DNA of 64,000 bases from Prosthecobacter dejongeii (GTDB lineage: Bacteria; Verrucomicrobiota; Verrucomicrobiia; Verrucomicrobiales; Verrucomicrobiaceae): positions 62,001 through 126,000 of the forward strand of contig NZ_JACHIF010000009.1 in NCBI RefSeq assembly GCF_014203045.1. Direction: 5' to 3'. The translations under genes were made by a program, and so were the position numbers. A model generated the notes under the pieces. The model did no database searches and was not told where the DNA came from. It worked only from the letters and a program-made list of their open reading frames with translations. Shown piece after piece: positions 12,793 to 38,448 of this stretch. Numbering within the stretch: the stretch's first letter is position 1; each line of letters opens with the position of its first letter.

Positions 12793-13500
12793 ATGCGCCC
12801 TCTTTCAGAATCCAGTACGGGTCTTAGTCTTTGGCAAAACCCTGCCAGACAGGGGCCTTTTCATCTCAGCGCTTTTTTAGCGGATGCCGCCGAACGCACT
12901 CCCACGACCACTCTGACCGTGGACGGCATGGAATTCACGTGTGAACAGGCTTGGATGAGTGTGCTCCGCATCGCCACCTGGCTGCAACAGAATGGCGTTT
13001 CCCGTGGGGACAAAGTGGTCACCGTGTTACGCCACAGCTCGGACCTGCATTTGATCACTTTGGCAGTGGCACACATCGGTGCCGTGGTTTCTGTGATCTC
13101 TCCGCAGATCCGCCAAGAAGCTTTCAAATCCATACTAGAAGAAGCTGAACCAGTTTGCCTCTTCCTGGAAAAGACCAGTCATCATCTCAAAGCCATGGCT
13201 GAAAACATCCTGACGGTCTGGATGACGGAAGGACTGAACGGCGGCGAATGGGACGAGGCCGAATTCAGTGAAGTAATGAATACACGTCCCGCATGGGGCA
13301 TGCGTTTCCCTGGAAAGTCCGAGGATCCTGCGTTTTTGGTGTTTCCCTCCAGTGGCGTGGCACAGTCTCACGGCATTCTGCTTTCTCACGAAAAAGTGCG
13401 TCACATGCTTGCGGCCCAATCGGGTAGAGAAGAAGGCATCTTTTCTCTTTTCGTAGACTCACCGGCGTCATCCCCGAATCTCGCGGTCCTAGAAGCCTAA
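12793..13500 (+). CDS. Half-length AMP-ligase-like protein with degenerate P-loop
   Basis: 235 aa. It resembles the N-terminal part of the full ligase encoded at 13748. Matching segments are GVSRGDKVVTVLRHSSDLHL versus GIRRGDRILLILPNSAEAVL, and HIGAVVSVISPQIRQEAFKS versus QQGVIFSVLSPQLQPEGLQR. The ATP-binding loop, FTSGSTGTPRG in the full enzyme, is FPSSGVAQSHG (184-194) here, with the Thr/Gly pattern and the basic residue lost. The protein ends about 40 residues later, before the A4-A10 motifs, so it should not adenylate anything alone. The frame is otherwise open. It could be a decaying duplicate or a non-catalytic partner. The stop lies 15 nt from the 3' end of tRNA-Val. Confidence 0.75.
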   Translation: MRPLSESSTGLSLWQNPARQGPFHLSAFLADAAERTPTTTLTVDGMEFTCEQAWMSVLRIATWLQQNGVSRGDKVVTVLRHSSDLHLITLAVAHIGAVVSVISPQIRQEAFKSILEEAEPVCLFLEKTSHHLKAMAENILTVWMTEGLNGGEWDEAEFSEVMNTRPAWGMRFPGKSEDPAFLVFPSSGVAQSHGILLSHEKVRHMLAAQSGREEGIFSLFVDSPASSPNLAVLEA

Positions 13501-13515: not shown

Positions 13516-13590
13516 TGGTACACGGAGAGGGATTCGAACCCCCGACCAACTCGGTGTAAACGAGCCGCTCTACCACTGAGCTATCCGTGC
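13516..13590 (-). tRNA. tRNA-Val (anticodon TAC)
   Basis: 75 nt including the encoded CCA (complement TGG at 13516-13518). Read on the minus strand the acceptor arm GCACGGA pairs with TCCGTGT (first pair G-U). The D-arm is AGCTCAGTGGTAGAGC, the anticodon loop TTTACAC gives TAC, and the T-arm GGGGGTTCGAATCCC is standard. Its 3' end faces the half-ligase gene. Confidence 0.95.
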
Positions 13591-13747: not shown

Positions 13748-15250
13748 ATGTTTGCACCATCTTTCTCCCTCACATTCCCCGCTCAATGGCTGGCGCAAGC
13801 TGCCAGGACCTGGCCTGAACAGGTTTTCATTTCCGGGGAACAGCCACTGACGTTTTCTGAAGCCTACCAGGAGGTGAGCCGGATCGCTGTTTGGATGGAA
13901 CAACGAGGCATCAGAAGAGGCGATCGTATCTTGTTAATTTTGCCAAATAGTGCTGAGGCGGTGTTGATTCTCTTAGCAGCACTTCAGCAAGGGGTGATCT
14001 TTTCTGTCCTAAGCCCACAGTTACAGCCGGAAGGGCTGCAACGAATCATTTCCCAATGCGGCCCGAAGGTCGTCTTTTTAGATCAAAGCACAGGCCATTT
14101 GCAGGGGACCGTTTCTCCAGACCAGGCGGTCTTTTTAGAAAATGTAAAGTGGCCTACCATTGAGGATGTGGACAGCCCGTCCCCCGCCGTCTTGCAGCCT
14201 GAGGATATCGCCTTCTTGGTATTTACCTCTGGCAGCACGGGTACCCCGCGTGGAGTCATGCTCACCCAAAAAAATGTAGGCTTTGTCTGCCCGGCTATTC
14301 TGGCACGGCTGAAATACAGGGCAGAAGACTGCATCGGCCTCTTTTTGCCCCTGGCCTTTGATTACAGCCTTTATCAGATTTTTTACGCCTGTCTCACGGG
14401 TGCGCGTTTGTTCATCGGCCGCCCCGAAAAAGTGGGGCCAGAGCTGCCCAAGATTTTAGCCCGTGAAAAGGTGACGGTGCTGCCGGGGGTGCCGACCGTG
14501 TTTGCGGCTTTGATCAAGATGCAGCGGTACCGCCCCACCTCGCTGCCATCACTGCGTATGATGACCAATACGGGTGATCACCTCCCCAAGGCCTACATTG
14601 ACCACCTGCGAGAGCTTTTTCCCCAGGCACAAATTTTCCCCATGTTTGGCCTCACGGAGTGCAAACGAGTCTCCATTTTATGCCCTGAAGAATTTGAAAC
14701 CCACCCTGAAAGTGTGGGGCGTCCGCTGGATGGAACGACGGTCTTTGCCGTCAACGCTGAAGGGGAAAAACTCCCCCCAGAGCAATCTGGAGAGTTGGTC
14801 GTTCAAGGGCCCCATCTTTCACCGGGTTATTGGGGAGCCGAAGAAGAGACTGCCAAACGTTTTCGCGAACTGGCTGGCACACGTAGCCTATTCACGGGTG
14901 ACTATGGCATCGTGGATGCTCAAGGTTATATCACGTTTCATTCGCGAGGTGATTTTGTCATCAAACATCGTGGTACCCGCTTAAGCCCTGCTGAGGTGGA
15001 AGAAGCCGCCTGCACGATCCCGCAAATCATCTCCGCAGGCTGCGTGAAAGATGACGAACGGGACCTGCTGTGCCTTTTCCTGGCCACCACGGATGATACG
15101 CTTACGGAAGCGGGAATCCTGGCTGCCTTGGCCACGCGTCTGGAACGTGGCAAGATCCCCGACCGAGTTTACTTCCAGCCTGATTTGCCCCGAACGACTA
15201 ACCAAAAGCTCGACCGCAAAGCGTTGCGTCGTTTGCTGACCACCGTGTAA
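13748..15250 (+). CDS. AMP-dependent ligase, amino-acid-activating type, carrier-protein loading
   Basis: 500 aa, complete adenylation enzyme. P-loop FTSGSTGTPRG (159-169). A4-type FDYSLYQIFYACLTGARLFI has Asp205, the residue that binds the alpha-amino group in NRPS and DltA-type A domains. Also present are the A5-like PMFGLTECKR, TGDYG, the hinge region GDFVIKHRGTRLSPAEVEEA and the catalytic-lysine region TTNQKLDRKAL at the C-terminus. This suggests amino acid rather than fatty acid activation, with transfer to the ACP encoded at 16502. The order ligase, PLP decarboxylase (7 nt gap), ACP matches exosortase-associated cassettes (families annotated ligase_PEP_1 and dCO2ase_PEP1) and the butirosin BtrJ/BtrK/BtrI trio. 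The substrate is not determined. Confidence 0.87.
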   Translation: MFAPSFSLTFPAQWLAQAARTWPEQVFISGEQPLTFSEAYQEVSRIAVWMEQRGIRRGDRILLILPNSAEAVLILLAALQQGVIFSVLSPQLQPEGLQRIISQCGPKVVFLDQSTGHLQGTVSPDQAVFLENVKWPTIEDVDSPSPAVLQPEDIAFLVFTSGSTGTPRGVMLTQKNVGFVCPAILARLKYRAEDCIGLFLPLAFDYSLYQIFYACLTGARLFIGRPEKVGPELPKILAREKVTVLPGVPTVFAALIKMQRYRPTSLPSLRMMTNTGDHLPKAYIDHLRELFPQAQIFPMFGLTECKRVSILCPEEFETHPESVGRPLDGTTVFAVNAEGEKLPPEQSGELVVQGPHLSPGYWGAEEETAKRFRELAGTRSLFTGDYGIVDAQGYITFHSRGDFVIKHRGTRLSPAEVEEAACTIPQIISAGCVKDDERDLLCLFLATTDDTLTEAGILAALATRLERGKIPDRVYFQPDLPRTTNQKLDRKALRRLLTTV

Positions 15251-15256
15251 CCTTTC

Positions 15257-16477
15257 ATGGACGCCCCACTCCTTCGTCTAGCCGAACAATTCGAAACACC
15301 TTTTTATGCTTATGACCTCGCCGAGGTCAAAAGGAGAACTCAGGAGCTGCGGGAAAGCTTGCCGGAAGGAGCCAGACTGCTGCACTCCTTCAAAGCCAAT
15401 CCCCTGCCCTCCATTGCCGAAAAAATTCGCCTCGAAGGCGGCACCGCAGAGATCACCTCTGAAGGGGAATTGCAGGCAGCCCGACTCGCCGGCCATGATA
15501 TGAGAGAAGCGCTTTACGGGGGGCCAGGAAAAACGGTAAGTGAAATCACTTCCGCCATGGCAGCAGGGGTGCGGTGGTTTTCGTGCGAGTCATGGAGAGA
15601 TCTGGAGCGCATCTCCGCCGTGGCCAGTCTGCGTGCTGCGGATGCCCAGATTCTGCTGAGAGTGAACCCGGCAGAAGCTCCACAGGCCCGCCTGGCAATG
15701 ACGGGGGTGGAAAGCCAATTTGGATTCGATGAAAGCCTCCTGCTAGCAGCAGGGGCCCGGGAAAAACTGCAACTTCCTCATGTCAAAATTCGGGGGATTC
15801 ACGTCTATTTCGGCACTCAAGTGGCATCAGTCGAAGCCCTGACCCAAAATACCCAACGAGCCATAGAAACGGCTGAACGATTGGAGAAGGCCCTGGGCTT
15901 CGTATGCAGTGTGGTGAATGCGGGCGGGGGTTTTCCCTGGCCCTACGCTAACCAGGGATCCCCCCCTGATCTGCAAGGGCTCAGAGGGGCACTTACTGCC
16001 GTCTGGGAAGCCTCCCCACTTCATGAAACCGCAGAACTCTGGTTTGAGGCTGGGCGCTATCTATGTGCAAGCGCAGGGACGCTTGTCTCGAGAGTTTTGG
16101 ATGTGAAACCTTCCCGCTCACGCACCTTTGTGGTGCTGGATACAGGCATTCATCATCTGGGGGGGATGGCGGGTCTCGGCCGCATCCCACGCAGTTCAGT
16201 GACTTTTCAAAACCTCAGTCGGCAGAGCGAAAACGAAGTCACGGCTGACATCGTGGGCCCGCTCTGCACTCCGCTGGATAGCCTGGCCCGAGGTCTAAAA
16301 ATGCCCGATGTGGCCGCTGGCGATTTGCTTGCGGTCCCCAATGTTGGCGCGTATGGACTGACTGCTAGCCTGATTGGTTTCCTCAGCCATCCTGCTCCCG
16401 CTGAAATCGCCTATCTGGACGGTGAAGTGGTACAGGTGTGGCAGTGGCGGACCGGTCACCAGCAGCTTCAGTCCTGA
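15257..16477 (+). CDS. Fold-III PLP-dependent decarboxylase (exosortase-associated / BtrK-like)
   Basis: 406 aa of the diaminopimelate/ornithine decarboxylase class. Lys46 in LLHSFKANPLP is the PLP Schiff base, NAGGGFPWPYAN and EAGRYLCASAGTLVSRVLD hold the phosphate-binding Gly loop and E-x-GR, and Cys337 in VGPLCTPLD is the active-site Cys from the partner subunit. LVVLDTGIHHLGG-type sequence (FVVLDTGIHHLGGMAGL) resembles the exosortase-system decarboxylase family and BtrK more than LysA. Beside a ligase and an ACP it probably decarboxylates an amino acid while it is bound to the carrier as a thioester. It starts 7 nt after the ligase stop. Confidence 0.85.
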   Translation: MDAPLLRLAEQFETPFYAYDLAEVKRRTQELRESLPEGARLLHSFKANPLPSIAEKIRLEGGTAEITSEGELQAARLAGHDMREALYGGPGKTVSEITSAMAAGVRWFSCESWRDLERISAVASLRAADAQILLRVNPAEAPQARLAMTGVESQFGFDESLLLAAGAREKLQLPHVKIRGIHVYFGTQVASVEALTQNTQRAIETAERLEKALGFVCSVVNAGGGFPWPYANQGSPPDLQGLRGALTAVWEASPLHETAELWFEAGRYLCASAGTLVSRVLDVKPSRSRTFVVLDTGIHHLGGMAGLGRIPRSSVTFQNLSRQSENEVTADIVGPLCTPLDSLARGLKMPDVAAGDLLAVPNVGAYGLTASLIGFLSHPAPAEIAYLDGEVVQVWQWRTGHQQLQS

Positions 16478-16501
16478 TTTGACTTTTCCTTGATAGCTAC
16501 C

Positions 16502-16753
16502 ATGTCCGATATCGCTCCCCGTCTCCTGGCCCTGCTACGCCCTCACCTGCGCATGCTCGCACCCGAGGCTCCTATCCGCCTTGAAGATGATCTGGGGAAG
16601 CTGGGGCTCGATTCACTGGAGTCCATTGATGTGCTGATGGAGATCGAAAGTGAATTTGGGGTCATCATCCCCGATGATCAAGTAACGGTGGATACACTCG
16701 CCACAGCAGGGAATCTACTGCAGGCGATTGAAGCCCAGATGGCGACCGCTTAG
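16502..16753 (+). CDS. Acyl carrier protein
   Basis: 83 aa acidic carrier protein. The phosphopantetheine site is Ser38 in KLGLDSLESIDVLMEIE, and helix 3 (DQVTVDTLATAGNLLQAI) follows, so the four-helix ACP fold is complete. The ATG at 16502 is preferred over an in-frame TTG at 16490. It is not the fatty-acid AcpP (no DSLD.VEL.M motif) but a dedicated carrier: it is the third gene after a ligase and a decarboxylase, 25 nt from the latter. The GNAT-like gene converges 31 nt downstream; a short palindrome (AGCAGGCCCTGCT, 16756-16768) lies between. Confidence 0.9.
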   Translation: MSDIAPRLLALLRPHLRMLAPEAPIRLEDDLGKLGLDSLESIDVLMEIESEFGVIIPDDQVTVDTLATAGNLLQAIEAQMATA

Positions 16754-16784: not shown

Positions 16785-17771
16785 TTAGAGGCCGAAATCG
16801 CCCTCGGCCATCACAGTGTGCTTGGCGACGTCTTTGAGTGCAGGTGGACAAGCATGAAAGTGGCTGACAAGAGCTTCATCCCGGATCAAAGCCCGCACGT
16901 CCAGCCAGTGCTCATCTTGAGGAAAACCGATCAACGATAAAAGATGGGCCGGGGGCCCAGGTAAATGAACCTCTCGTGAAATAAGTGCCCCCACCAAAGC
17001 GGCGAGTTCTTGGTTGTCTGCCTCCGTGGAGAAGGATTCCAGCAGCATCCACAAGTGGATGCCACGGCGGGAACGGCGGGTCAGCCATAGGTAGGAAGTC
17101 AGGCAGCCTTCTGCATCCACCACGCCTAAAAACTGGTGCTCGCGAAGCCTGGCTGCGGCGTACCAGCGCAGAGTCTCAAGGCAGATCCACTTTTCCAGCC
17201 GCCCGCTTTGCTGCCACGGACGCTCCAGTTGACGGACGTCGTTCACATTGGTGGTGAAGCGGTGACCGGGCTTCAAGGCTGGCCAAGACTGGCCAGTGAA
17301 TCGGCCGAAAAGTTTACCCCAAAAACCGAGGGGTAACATCTGCCGACGGACCTTCAGTTCCCCGATCCACCCCAGGCGAAGGATCAAAGCCTGCACTTCA
17401 AGGCTAGGGGTGGAGTCTAACAAAAGGTGCGTCTTAGCCAGTCGCTGCATCTTCAACGCCATGGGCAAAGCCGCATGGCGAAACCCCTCTTGCACAACCC
17501 AGCTTGTGGCGATGAGGGCTGGCACAGGCTGGCCAGCGAAGGCATAGCGCACAGGAATAAAGCCCAGAAAACCAACCAGCCGACCAGCCGCTTTCAAAAC
17601 CCAGCCGCGCTCGGCCGAATCACTGGCATGGGGATTTTCATCCCACCAGTGTTTCAACCGCTGTTGCCAAAGTTCCTCAGAAGGGCCGTCGGGTAATTCC
17701 TGGCACAAAAAAGGCACTAACTCTGCCCGCGCCGAGACGCTGTCAGTGTAAGGCTCAATGTGGCAGGACAT
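16785..17771 (-). CDS. GNAT-like acyltransferase paralogue 1
   Basis: 328 aa from ATG 17771 (an in-frame GTG at 17780 is possible and shares the GGAGG). It is paralogous to the next gene upstream. Both carry the WWDENPH/WWDKNPH N-terminal motif, a GFLGFIP/GFGGFIP strand, PVPALIATSWVV versus PVPGLYATSFRV, RLEKWICLETLRWY versus RIEKWTTVDSLKWY, RSRRGIHLWM versus RRRRGIATWD, and the C-terminus KHTVMAEGDFGL versus KHTVLAEGDLGL. The pattern (VGFLGFIP, then a helix after AALPMALKMQRLAK) fits the GNAT N-acyltransferase fold. No family function is known to me. It lies tail to tail with the ACP gene. Confidence 0.7.
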   Translation of the reverse strand: MSCHIEPYTDSVSARAELVPFLCQELPDGPSEELWQQRLKHWWDENPHASDSAERGWVLKAAGRLVGFLGFIPVRYAFAGQPVPALIATSWVVQEGFRHAALPMALKMQRLAKTHLLLDSTPSLEVQALILRLGWIGELKVRRQMLPLGFWGKLFGRFTGQSWPALKPGHRFTTNVNDVRQLERPWQQSGRLEKWICLETLRWYAAARLREHQFLGVVDAEGCLTSYLWLTRRSRRGIHLWMLLESFSTEADNQELAALVGALISREVHLPGPPAHLLSLIGFPQDEHWLDVRALIRDEALVSHFHACPPALKDVAKHTVMAEGDFGL

Positions 17772-17807
17772 AGCCTCCACTATGCCTAACCCAGAGAAGT
17801 AAACAAC

Positions 17808-18785
17808 TTACAAGCCTAAATCTCCTTCTGCCAGCACGGTGTGTTTCGGCGCGTGAGACAGGTCTTTAGGCAGCAGAAAGTAATGACAGACCTGCTCTTT
17901 CCTGCGGATGAGAGTCGGCATTTGGGCGAGCCAAGGCTCATCCCCAAAATCAGTCACCGTCAGCAAGCGCCTCCGGCCTGGAAGCCGATCTGGCTCATGC
18001 ACCAACGTGCCCAGCACAGCCATAAGTTCCTCGGGAGTTTCGCGGGTGGTAAATGTCTCGACCACATCCCAAGTTGCGATGCCACGGCGGCGGCGTGCGG
18101 TGATCAAAAGATAGGAGCTCAAGACCCCTGCTGCATCCACCGCCCCGATGAAGTAGTGCTGGCGCATGGGCGAAAGGCAATACCATTTCAGAGAGTCCAC
18201 CGTCGTCCATTTTTCAATCCGATCTGCTTTCTGGTAAGGGCGCGCGAGGGAGGTCACTTCATTGAGATCGCTCACGATCTTCATGCCCGATGCCAGGGCT
18301 GGCCAGGGTGGCTGGCCATTGAAATAACCTAATTTGCCTAAAGCCACGTAGTGGCAAGTCACCTGCGTTTCCCCCCGCCCGCCCATTTTGACCAAGGCCG
18401 TCTGGATCTTGGGCAAAGGGGTGGAATGGACGATGACGTGCTTCTGCATGACCTCGCGCTGGTTGAGAAACATCTTCGCAGCCGCTTTGGAGTGCTTTTC
18501 ATCCACCCGAAAACTGGTGGCGTACAGGCCCGGGACTGGCTGTCCCTGCCACGCAAACATAGCGGGAATAAAGCCGCCAAACCCCACAATGTCTTCCCCT
18601 GCAAGAGCCGTGTAGCCGAGATGCGAGTCTGCCTCGCGGTGGGGGTTTTTATCCCACCAAAATTCCAAACGATGCAGCCAGATGCTGACGGGTGTTTCCG
18701 GCCAGGAGACATGGAGATATGCCGCGAGTGCATCACGCGTCACAAGCCCATCATGGTGAGGAATGACCTGGGTGTTTGAAGCCAT
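17808..18785 (-). CDS. GNAT-like acyltransferase paralogue 2
   Basis: 325 aa, first gene of a two-gene minus-strand unit (36 nt gap to paralogue 1). The GNAT core is suggested by VGFGGFIPAMFAW and the following strand-helix segments; FIGAVDAAGVLSSYLLITAR and the arginine-rich turn lie in the second half, which may be a second GNAT-like lobe. The last twelve residues, KHTVLAEGDLGL, are nearly identical in the two copies, so that tail is probably functional. The duplication is old, since most of the sequence has diverged. A plausible role is transfer of the product held on the nearby ACP, but only the neighbourhood supports this. Confidence 0.68.
   Translation of the reverse strand: MASNTQVIPHHDGLVTRDALAAYLHVSWPETPVSIWLHRLEFWWDKNPHREADSHLGYTALAGEDIVGFGGFIPAMFAWQGQPVPGLYATSFRVDEKHSKAAAKMFLNQREVMQKHVIVHSTPLPKIQTALVKMGGRGETQVTCHYVALGKLGYFNGQPPWPALASGMKIVSDLNEVTSLARPYQKADRIEKWTTVDSLKWYCLSPMRQHYFIGAVDAAGVLSSYLLITARRRRGIATWDVVETFTTRETPEELMAVLGTLVHEPDRLPGRRRLLTVTDFGDEPWLAQMPTLIRRKEQVCHYFLLPKDLSHAPKHTVLAEGDLGL

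Positions 18786-34525: not shown

Positions 34526-38448
<3,923 letters not shown>

What the first reader, a model, noticed from the sequence alone, without database searches (positions are those of the whole stretch)
13748..16753. Aminoacyl-ACP cassette: amino-acid adenylase, fold-III PLP decarboxylase, dedicated ACP
Three tightly spaced genes encode an adenylation enzyme with the A4 Asp (FDYS, Asp205) expected for alpha-amino acids, a BtrK/exosortase-type decarboxylase (Lys46, Cys337) and an ACP (Ser38). By analogy with butirosin BtrJ/I/K, an amino acid would be loaded on the ACP and decarboxylated as a thioester. Similar ligase and decarboxylase families are known beside exosortase A with unknown purpose. 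Here the set is about 20 kb from the exosortase and beside GNAT-like genes, so it may make an amine-bearing group for surface attachment.
Basis: partly seen in the sequence, partly recalled or inferred. Interest (0 to 1): 0.7.

Follow-up and report, generated by a model that had tools for sequence, protein, structure and literature searches.

The report
Beta-alanyl carrier cassette with acyltransferase
A bacterial gene set that probably converts aspartate into beta-alanine while it is tethered to a small carrier protein and hands it to a partner acyltransferase, perhaps to decorate a surface sugar; it also suggests a chemistry for an enzyme trio so far named only by its exosortase association.

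Summary
The three genes are real and exactly placed: ligase, fold-III decarboxylase, ACP. The ligase's best solved relative is VinN, which loads the beta-carboxyl of (3-methyl)aspartate; VinN's Asp230, Lys330 and Arg331 positions are kept in 23 of 23 cassette ligases aligned. The decarboxylase is BtrK/VinO-type, not LysA: C[TS]PLD replaces CES, it falls outside a 100/100 LysA clade, and a true lysA lies elsewhere. No glutamate mutase was found in 12 of 12 genomes, so L-Asp to beta-alanyl-ACP is likeliest. The exosortase link fails: its ~20 kb proximity is shared synteny, also seen in a genome without the cassette. The unexpected partner is a GNAT of Eis/N-myristoyltransferase fold. Its clade A occurs in 20 of 22 decarboxylase-positive and 0 of 17 negative genomes, in two of them unlinked. 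Three related cassettes lie beside deacetylase and glycosyltransferase genes. Most likely: beta-alanylation of an amine, perhaps an amino sugar. Acceptor and activities are inferred. Known chemistry, new variant.

The parts
13748..15250 (+). VinN-type adenylation enzyme (ligase), predicted to load the beta-carboxyl of L-aspartate on the ACP
   Evidence: VinN 3wvn best PDB hit, E 5.9e-90; Asp205, Lys306, Arg307 at VinN Asp230, Lys330, Arg331; Thr at Ser299
15257..16477 (+). fold-III PLP decarboxylase of the BtrK/VinO type, predicted to remove the alpha-carboxylate of isoaspartyl-ACP
   Evidence: BtrK 2j66 best PDB hit, E 3.6e-60; GPLCTPLD instead of GPxCES; outside the LysA clade
16490..16753 (+). 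dedicated acyl carrier protein (start probably ATG at 16502), Ser38 in GLDSLES
16785..17780 (-). clade A GNAT-fold acyltransferase (tandem GNAT, Eis/N-myristoyltransferase-like), converges on the ACP gene; predicted beta-alanyl transferase
17808..18785 (-). clade B GNAT paralogue; in the loci mapped it adjoins the cassette only here and in G033, elsewhere clade B genes stand apart; role in the cassette doubtful

Best explanation
A VinN/VinL/VinO-type cassette used outside polyketide synthesis. The ligase adenylates the side-chain carboxyl of L-aspartate and puts it on the phosphopantetheine of the ACP. The BtrK/VinO-type decarboxylase removes the free alpha-carboxylate, giving beta-alanyl-ACP. 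A dedicated clade A GNAT of Eis/N-myristoyltransferase fold then moves the beta-alanyl group from the ACP to an amine, probably with its C-terminal carboxylate as base; an amino sugar of a surface polysaccharide is the likeliest acceptor. Shown: genes, families, pocket residues, phylogeny, co-occurrence, predicted fold. Inferred: substrate L-Asp (about 0.7), transfer from the ACP by the GNAT (about 0.6), polysaccharide acceptor (about 0.4; raised from 0.35 in my draft after one search showed a third such cluster).
For: VinN is the best PDB match; Asp230/Lys330/Arg331 positions kept in 23 of 23 cassette ligases aligned. [quoted passage not shown] FlvN recognises Asp; in vicenistatin thioester formation must precede decarboxylation by VinO (PMC11284099, passages and section 5). 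Decarboxylase: BtrK best PDB match; GPLC[TS]PLD in 20 of 21 cassette enzymes and GQLCTPLD in the other, against GP[IV]CES[GA]D in 25 of 25 LysA-like loci; groups with a VinO-like enzyme that sits beside a methylaspartate mutase. No glutamate mutase in 12 of 12 cassette genomes (weak control, the family rang in 1 of 14 control genomes). GNAT clade A in 20 of 22 decarboxylase-positive and 0 of 17 decarboxylase-negative genomes, including G236 and G247 where it is unlinked. Model pLDDT 94.6; Z 17.3 to Eis2, 15.5 to N-myristoyltransferase. Polysaccharide setting: cassettes L047, L048 and L143 beside polysaccharide deacetylase and glycosyltransferase genes (Pfam run on L047 and L143; L048 by shared gene order); distant GNAT homologue in an O-antigen-type cluster.
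Against: No activity was measured. VinN Ser299 is Thr in the cassette ligases. In the plasmid set Arg331 is present in all 24 ligases, decarboxylase or not, so it does not discriminate; 4 of 10 ligases without a decarboxylase also have Asp230 and Lys330. G007 has ligase, decarboxylase and ACP but no GNAT match. G015 and G025 (both 81% complete) have a close ligase but no decarboxylase or GNAT match; G015's ligase is at a contig edge, G025's is not. This window's cassette is not next to polysaccharide genes. The clade A split has support 92/84 only, and co-occurrence counts are not corrected for relatedness. G036's GNAT lies on a very long branch.
Confidence: 0.6

Rival explanations
1. Small-molecule pathway: the beta-aminoacyl-ACP is a building block of a soluble secondary metabolite and the GNAT acylates a small amine, as Eis acylates aminoglycosides, not a surface glycan.
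For: Related ligase/decarboxylase/ACP trios on plasmids lie in natural-product-like gene sets. The GNAT fold is closest to Eis.
Against: No PKS or NRPS among the 19 window ORFs scanned; the flanks in relatives were scanned only in part. Conserved in the genus with one partner clade. Three cassettes lie beside deacetylase and glycosyltransferase genes.
Confidence: 0.25
2. Same machinery but another substrate: 3-methylaspartate (giving 3-aminoisobutyryl-ACP) or glutamate loaded through its gamma-carboxyl (giving GABA-ACP, as in butirosin).
For: VinN recognises 3-methylaspartate, and L-Asp only with low efficiency (PMC11284099, passages); BtrK, the nearest solved decarboxylase, acts on glutamyl-ACP (PMC7857480, passages).
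Against: No glutamate mutase in 12 of 12 genomes (weak control). The ligase is VinN-type, whereas BtrJ is ATP-grasp (recalled).
Confidence: 0.15
3. Exosortase/PEP-CTERM accessory: the cassette makes a group used in attachment of sorted proteins.
For: Best NCBIfam models are the exosortase-A-associated ligase and decarboxylase; an exosortase is about 19 kb away.
Against: Scores are far below both cut-offs (291.6 of 592.35; 286.4 of 478.45). Proximity is syntenic and kept without the cassette in G018; 7 of 9 exosortase-bearing cassette genomes show no linkage (contig breaks limit this); G036 has no exosortase match. The decarboxylase groups with VinO-like enzymes, not with the XrtA-locus enzyme.
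Confidence: 0.06
4. Metabolic supply: a PanD bypass that gives free beta-alanine for pantothenate.
For: panD not found in 8 of 20 genomes with the close ligase (G000 among them), against 5 of 36 without it.
Against: 12 of 20 ligase-bearing genomes also have panD, including G033; several negatives are incomplete genomes. It does not explain the GNAT partner.
Confidence: 0.05
5. The decarboxylase acts on free diaminopimelate or another free amino acid and the ligase loads its product.
For: lysA is the second-best NCBIfam model (237.7 bits).
Against: True LysA elsewhere at 486.7 bits; the LysA CES motif is lost; separate from a 100/100 LysA clade (with a long-branch warning).
Confidence: 0.04

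Closest known systems
VinN/VinL/VinO (vicenistatin) and FlvN with its ACP and decarboxylase (fluvirucin B2)
   Same: Stand-alone beta-amino-acid adenylation enzyme with Asp at A4 and Lys-Arg after the A5 Glu-Cys, stand-alone ACP, fold-III decarboxylase acting on the loaded ACP (no FlvN sequence was compared)
   Different: In those clusters a second aminoacyl ligase, a dipeptidyl transferase and a PKS follow; here a GNAT partner is found instead; VinN Ser299 is Thr
BolO/BolC/BolN (bolagladin)
   Same: Proposed L-Asp beta-carboxyl loading and decarboxylation to beta-alanyl-ACP (PMC7756342, passages)
   Different: There it feeds a lipodepsipeptide; no NRPS among the window ORFs scanned
BtrI/BtrK (butirosin)
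   Same: Carrier-protein decarboxylase and small dedicated ACP; BtrK is the best PDB match (PMC7857480, passages)
   Different: Ligase class differs (BtrJ is ATP-grasp, recalled); glutamate instead of a VinN-type pocket
Exosortase-A-associated trio (TIGR03098, TIGR03099, ACP)
   Same: Same three kinds of gene; the Sphingomonas XrtA-locus ligase also has Asp, Ser and Arg at the VinN Asp230, Ser299 and Arg331 positions and its decarboxylase the GPLCTPLD motif
   Different: Lys330 is Phe there; cassette proteins are below both curated cut-offs; no exosortase link here
DltA/DltC/DltB and AlmEFG surface aminoacylation
   Same: Ligase + carrier protein + acyltransferase put an amino acid on a surface polymer (PMC3783018, passages)
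   Different: Those load glycine or D-alanine unchanged; AlmG is LPLAT-type, DltB MBOAT-type (recalled); here the amino acid would be remade on the carrier and the transferase is a GNAT
Eis and N-myristoyltransferase (tandem GNAT fold)
   Same: Whole-length fold match, Z 17.3 and 15.5, up to near the C-terminus
   Different: 8-12% identity in the rows shown; donor here predicted to be ACP-bound, not CoA-bound

Membership tests
VinN-type beta-amino-acid adenylation enzyme | Closest solved relative is VinN | tested here: met
   3wvn E 5.9e-90, 305 bits; next protein, a gramicidin synthase, 213 bits
VinN-type beta-amino-acid adenylation enzyme | Asp230, Lys330 and Arg331 positions | tested here: met
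   23 of 23 cassette ligases aligned
VinN-type beta-amino-acid adenylation enzyme | Ser299 position | tested here: inconclusive
   Thr in 23 of 23; a conservative change, also Thr in the VinN-like ligase of L179
VinN-type beta-amino-acid adenylation enzyme | Loads the beta-carboxyl of an aspartate on an ACP | not testable with these tools
   needs an assay
Carrier-protein fold-III decarboxylase (BtrK/VinO) | Closest solved relative is BtrK and it falls outside LysA | tested here: met
   (34-row tree, long-branch warning)
Carrier-protein fold-III decarboxylase (BtrK/VinO) | C-[TS]-P-x-D in place of LysA C-E-S-x-D | tested here: met
   21 of 21 cassette enzymes (G036 as GQLCTPLD); BtrK and 8 of 9 plasmid enzymes have GPLCTP, S. 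meliloti GCLCTPLD, Paracoccus GPLCTSID
Diaminopimelate decarboxylase LysA (TIGR01048) | Score over the curated cut-off | tested here: not met
   237.7 against 297.9 bits; own lysA elsewhere 486.7
Exosortase-A-associated ligase and decarboxylase (TIGR03098/TIGR03099) | Score over the curated cut-offs | tested here: not met
   291.6 of 592.35 and 286.4 of 478.45
Exosortase-A-associated ligase and decarboxylase (TIGR03098/TIGR03099) | Linked to an exosortase locus | tested here: not met
   about 20 kb in G000 and G033 only, synteny kept in G018 without the cassette; not linked in 7 other genomes; no match in G036
Eis / N-myristoyltransferase tandem GNAT | Two GNAT-like domains with the C-terminus at the active centre | tested here: inconclusive
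   fold match over residues 1-326 of 328; no sequence match in Pfam or NCBIfam, the paralogue none in PDB sequences; active-centre placement not examined
Surface polymer aminoacylation (Dlt/Alm-like) | Amino acid found on a surface polymer | not testable with these tools
   needs envelope chemistry

The most novel reading that the evidence does not exclude
One widespread chemistry: the Prosthecobacter cassette, the polysaccharide-cluster trios of Sinorhizobium and Paracoccus and the exosortase-A-associated trio all build a beta-aminoacyl (beta-alanyl) group on a carrier protein by decarboxylating isoaspartyl-ACP, and a transferase puts it on surface-glycan amines, making an amine-bearing, positively charged decoration. 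This would assign a function to TIGR03098/TIGR03099.
Probability: 0.28. Interest if true: 0.75.

Novelty: new variant of a known kind. Interest (0 to 1): 0.5.

Why it matters
It gives a concrete, cheap test (mass shift of holo-ACP with Asp, ligase, decarboxylase) for a gene trio whose NCBI models are named only by exosortase association. It ties that trio to natural-product chemistry (VinN/VinO, Bol) and points to a dedicated GNAT acyltransferase group with no Pfam or NCBIfam match. If the acceptor is a surface glycan, it is a Dlt/Alm-like surface aminoacylation in which the amino acid is remade on its carrier.

Tried and rejected
Exosortase link: tested and rejected as synteny. LysA identity: rejected. 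PanD bypass: weak correlation only. Sequence search of the GNAT paralogue (clade B) against the PDB gave nothing (best E 0.33), so the fold of GNAT A was predicted. A Lys330/Arg331 'code' for a neighbouring decarboxylase was tested on 24 plasmid ligases: Arg331 is in 24 of 24, so it fails; Asp230 is in 14 of 14 with and 4 of 10 without a decarboxylase (Fisher p 0.0016), not corrected for relatedness. These 24 are a chosen set: 9 from the best 30, one (S. meliloti, H58) reached through the decarboxylase search, 14 of the 40 rows. Haft 2006 (PMC1569441) holds none of the terms decarboxylase, ligase, acyl carrier or acyltransferase. Searches for a prior assignment of the exosortase-A trio and for beta-alanine on polysaccharides showed nothing on the point in the listed rows (15, 12, 12, 12 of 39, 108, 84, 128); the library holds open-licence papers only. 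PMC11340318 (Sphingomonas exopolysaccharide) was looked into by passages and says nothing of the trio. A YN00 dN/dS run failed for most pairs at saturation and raw proportions were used. The S. meliloti GNAT-like ORF before its trio matches the GNAT profile only weakly (E 8e-4 in a small set) and was not counted. Rows dropped before the GNAT tree: five fragments (three in G006, G247:C2, G030:C29). G031's ligase, in two pieces, was left out. L113, a decarboxylase-like hit with neither motif (QTCTPYD, no ligase in its 4.1 kb), was left out of the LysA count.
Full report
Observation. The window is contig 9, bases 62001-126000, of a 6.0 Mb genome in 22 contigs. Relatives found through the GNAT genes are titled Prosthecobacter, Brevifollis, Verrucomicrobiaceae or Verrucomicrobia bacterium, two as Akkermansia muciniphila MAGs. 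The three reported ORFs are present, nearly touching, and have strong family matches.

Ligase. phmmer against PDB sequences puts VinN first (305 bits; the next protein, a gramicidin synthase, 213). VinN's Asp230, Lys330 and Arg331 (chain numbers minus 16; Lys330 recalled, Asp230/Ser299/Arg331 named in PMC7756342, passages) align with Asp205, Lys306 and Arg307. All 23 cassette ligases aligned keep them; Ser299 is Thr in all 23.

Decarboxylase. BtrK is the best solved relative (207 bits against 144 for the best LysA). The LysA motif C-E-S-x-D is replaced by C-[TS]-P-L-D in 21 of 21 cassette enzymes (20 as GPLC[TS]PLD, G036 as GQLCTPLD), whereas 25 of 25 LysA-like loci of the phylum keep CES; one further hit, L113, has neither and was set aside. 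A maximum-likelihood tree of 34 rows separates 13 LysA (100/100) from the rest; the 12 cassette rows form one group (100/98) inside a group (100/99) with the VinO-like and three other plasmid enzymes. The tool warned of long branches there. A LysA over the cut-off (486.7 bits) lies on contig 1.

Substrate. A VinN/VinO-like pair on a Streptomyces plasmid sits beside a methylaspartate mutase. No such mutase was found in 12 of 12 cassette-bearing genomes; the control is weak, as the family rang in 1 of 14 control genomes. L-aspartate, giving beta-alanyl-ACP, is therefore the best guess, as for FlvN (PMC11284099, passages and section 5) and as proposed for BolO/BolC/BolN (PMC7756342).

The GNAT partner. 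Two GNAT-like genes converge on the ACP gene. Of the 47 GNAT loci (44 with Verrucomicrobia-type titles, 2 Omnitrophota, 1 Acidobacteria), 21 have ACP and decarboxylase genes beside the GNAT; many are the same genomes as my G handles, so this is not independent. In 39 genomes a tree of 41 GNATs shows two groups: B (19 rows, support 98/92) and A (21 rows, 92/84), with G036's GNAT on a long branch. Clade A occurs in 20 genomes, all among the 22 with the decarboxylase, and in none of the 17 without it (Fisher p 3e-9; not corrected for relatedness). In G236 and G247 clade A lies on another contig, well inside it, so the link is not only adjacency. In G009 the ligase, and in G036 the decarboxylase and ACP, lie on another contig from the rest. 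Exceptions: G007 has no GNAT match; G015 and G025 (81% complete) have a close ligase but no decarboxylase or GNAT match, and G025's ligase has no decarboxylase beside it. Clade B occurs with and without the cassette. The AlphaFold model of GNAT A (33 sequences, pLDDT 94.6) matches Eis2 (Z 17.3, 3.9 A over 295 residues) and N-myristoyltransferase (Z 15.5, 6.0 A over 292) nearly to the last residue. All 41 GNATs of the tree have Gly-Asp within the last eight residues, 31 of them ending EGD[WLFY]GL. Both known families use their C-terminal carboxylate as base (recalled), so I infer the same here. GNAT A and B match no Pfam or NCBIfam model at E 0.01.

Setting. In G002 (L047) the cassette lies with a polysaccharide deacetylase (E 1.6e-21), a glycosyltransferase (E 9e-15), a hexapeptide transferase, an FkbM methyltransferase and, between ACP and GNAT, a luciferase-like monooxygenase (E 3e-24); G020's second copy (L048) has the same gene order. 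In G282 (L143) a polysaccharide deacetylase (E 2e-20) and a glycosyltransferase (E 9e-28) precede the GNAT. In G036 the ligase is followed by its GNAT and a glycosyltransferase (E 4e-8). A distant GNAT homologue in Omnitrophota sits among formyltransferase, WbqC, DegT, deacetylase and sugar-phosphate transferase (Glycos_transf_4) genes. Related trios lie beside glycosyltransferase and deacetylase genes in Sinorhizobium meliloti and beside GT61 genes in Paracoccus, by the records' own annotation. This window's cassette is not in such a cluster, nor did I annotate the flanks of every relative, so the acceptor stays open.

Exosortase. The exosortase is at 35691-37388. I searched 12 genomes. Of the 10 with the cassette genes, 9 have exosortases. 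In G000 and G033 one is about 20 kb from the cassette. In G236, G247, G009, G008, G005 and G024 they are on other contigs, in G016 about 1 Mb away or on another contig; contig breaks limit this. G036 has no match. G018, without ligase or decarboxylase, keeps the same neighbourhood, half-ligase to exosortase about 22 kb.

Control on the pocket. Of 24 chosen plasmid ligases, 14 have a homologous decarboxylase in the fetched stretch (6-10 kb flanks): Asp230 in 14 of 14; Lys330 is Lys in 9, His in 1, Phe in 4. Of 10 without: Asp230 in 4, Gly in 6. Arg331 is in 24 of 24, so it is no discriminator.

Verdict. A real, conserved cassette whose chemistry is known from natural products, in a new setting with a new transferase partner. 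Trio chemistry is well supported by sequence, transfer by the GNAT fairly, the acceptor weakly.

Noticed in passing
window 12793-13500 (+): A conserved half-ligase: only the N-terminal ~235 aa of an AMP ligase, degenerate P-loop, no later motifs, following an amino-acid ABC permease and ATPase in the six genomes mapped (two of them, G018 and G034, without the decarboxylase). Codons 21-180 show pN 0.04-0.10 at pS 0.67-0.87, so it is under purifying selection; shorter-matching homologues with open frames of 217-257 codons occur in five other genomes. Possibly a pseudoenzyme.
   Followed up: partly
window 13516-13590 (-): tRNA-Val gene between the half-ligase and the ligase; G018 has the flanking genes without the cassette, so the cassette may have been inserted or lost beside the tRNA. 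The tRNA was not looked for in the relatives.
   Followed up: partly
window 17808-18785 (-) and L051, L088, L097: Clade-B-like GNAT genes lie near the same amino-acid ABC permease/ATPase pair in several genomes.
   Followed up: no
L047 6748-7782 (-), L048: A luciferase-like monooxygenase gene between ACP and GNAT in the polysaccharide-cluster version of the cassette; might hydroxylate the carrier-bound group as BtrO does in butirosin (recalled).
   Followed up: no
L184, L185, L186, L189, L191 (plasmids of Sinorhizobium, Mesorhizobium, Shinella, Nitratireductor): VinN-like ligase and ACP in a recurrent set with asnB and nadE and without a homologous decarboxylase; L184-L186 keep Asp230/Lys330, L189 and L191 have Gly and Thr or Val.
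   Followed up: partly
genome G000: No panD match in G000, while G033 and 42 others of the 56 genomes have one.
   Followed up: partly
L113 (G379): A decarboxylase-like protein (258.9 bits to TIGR03099) with QTCTPYD, neither the LysA nor the cassette motif, from another family of the phylum.
   Followed up: no
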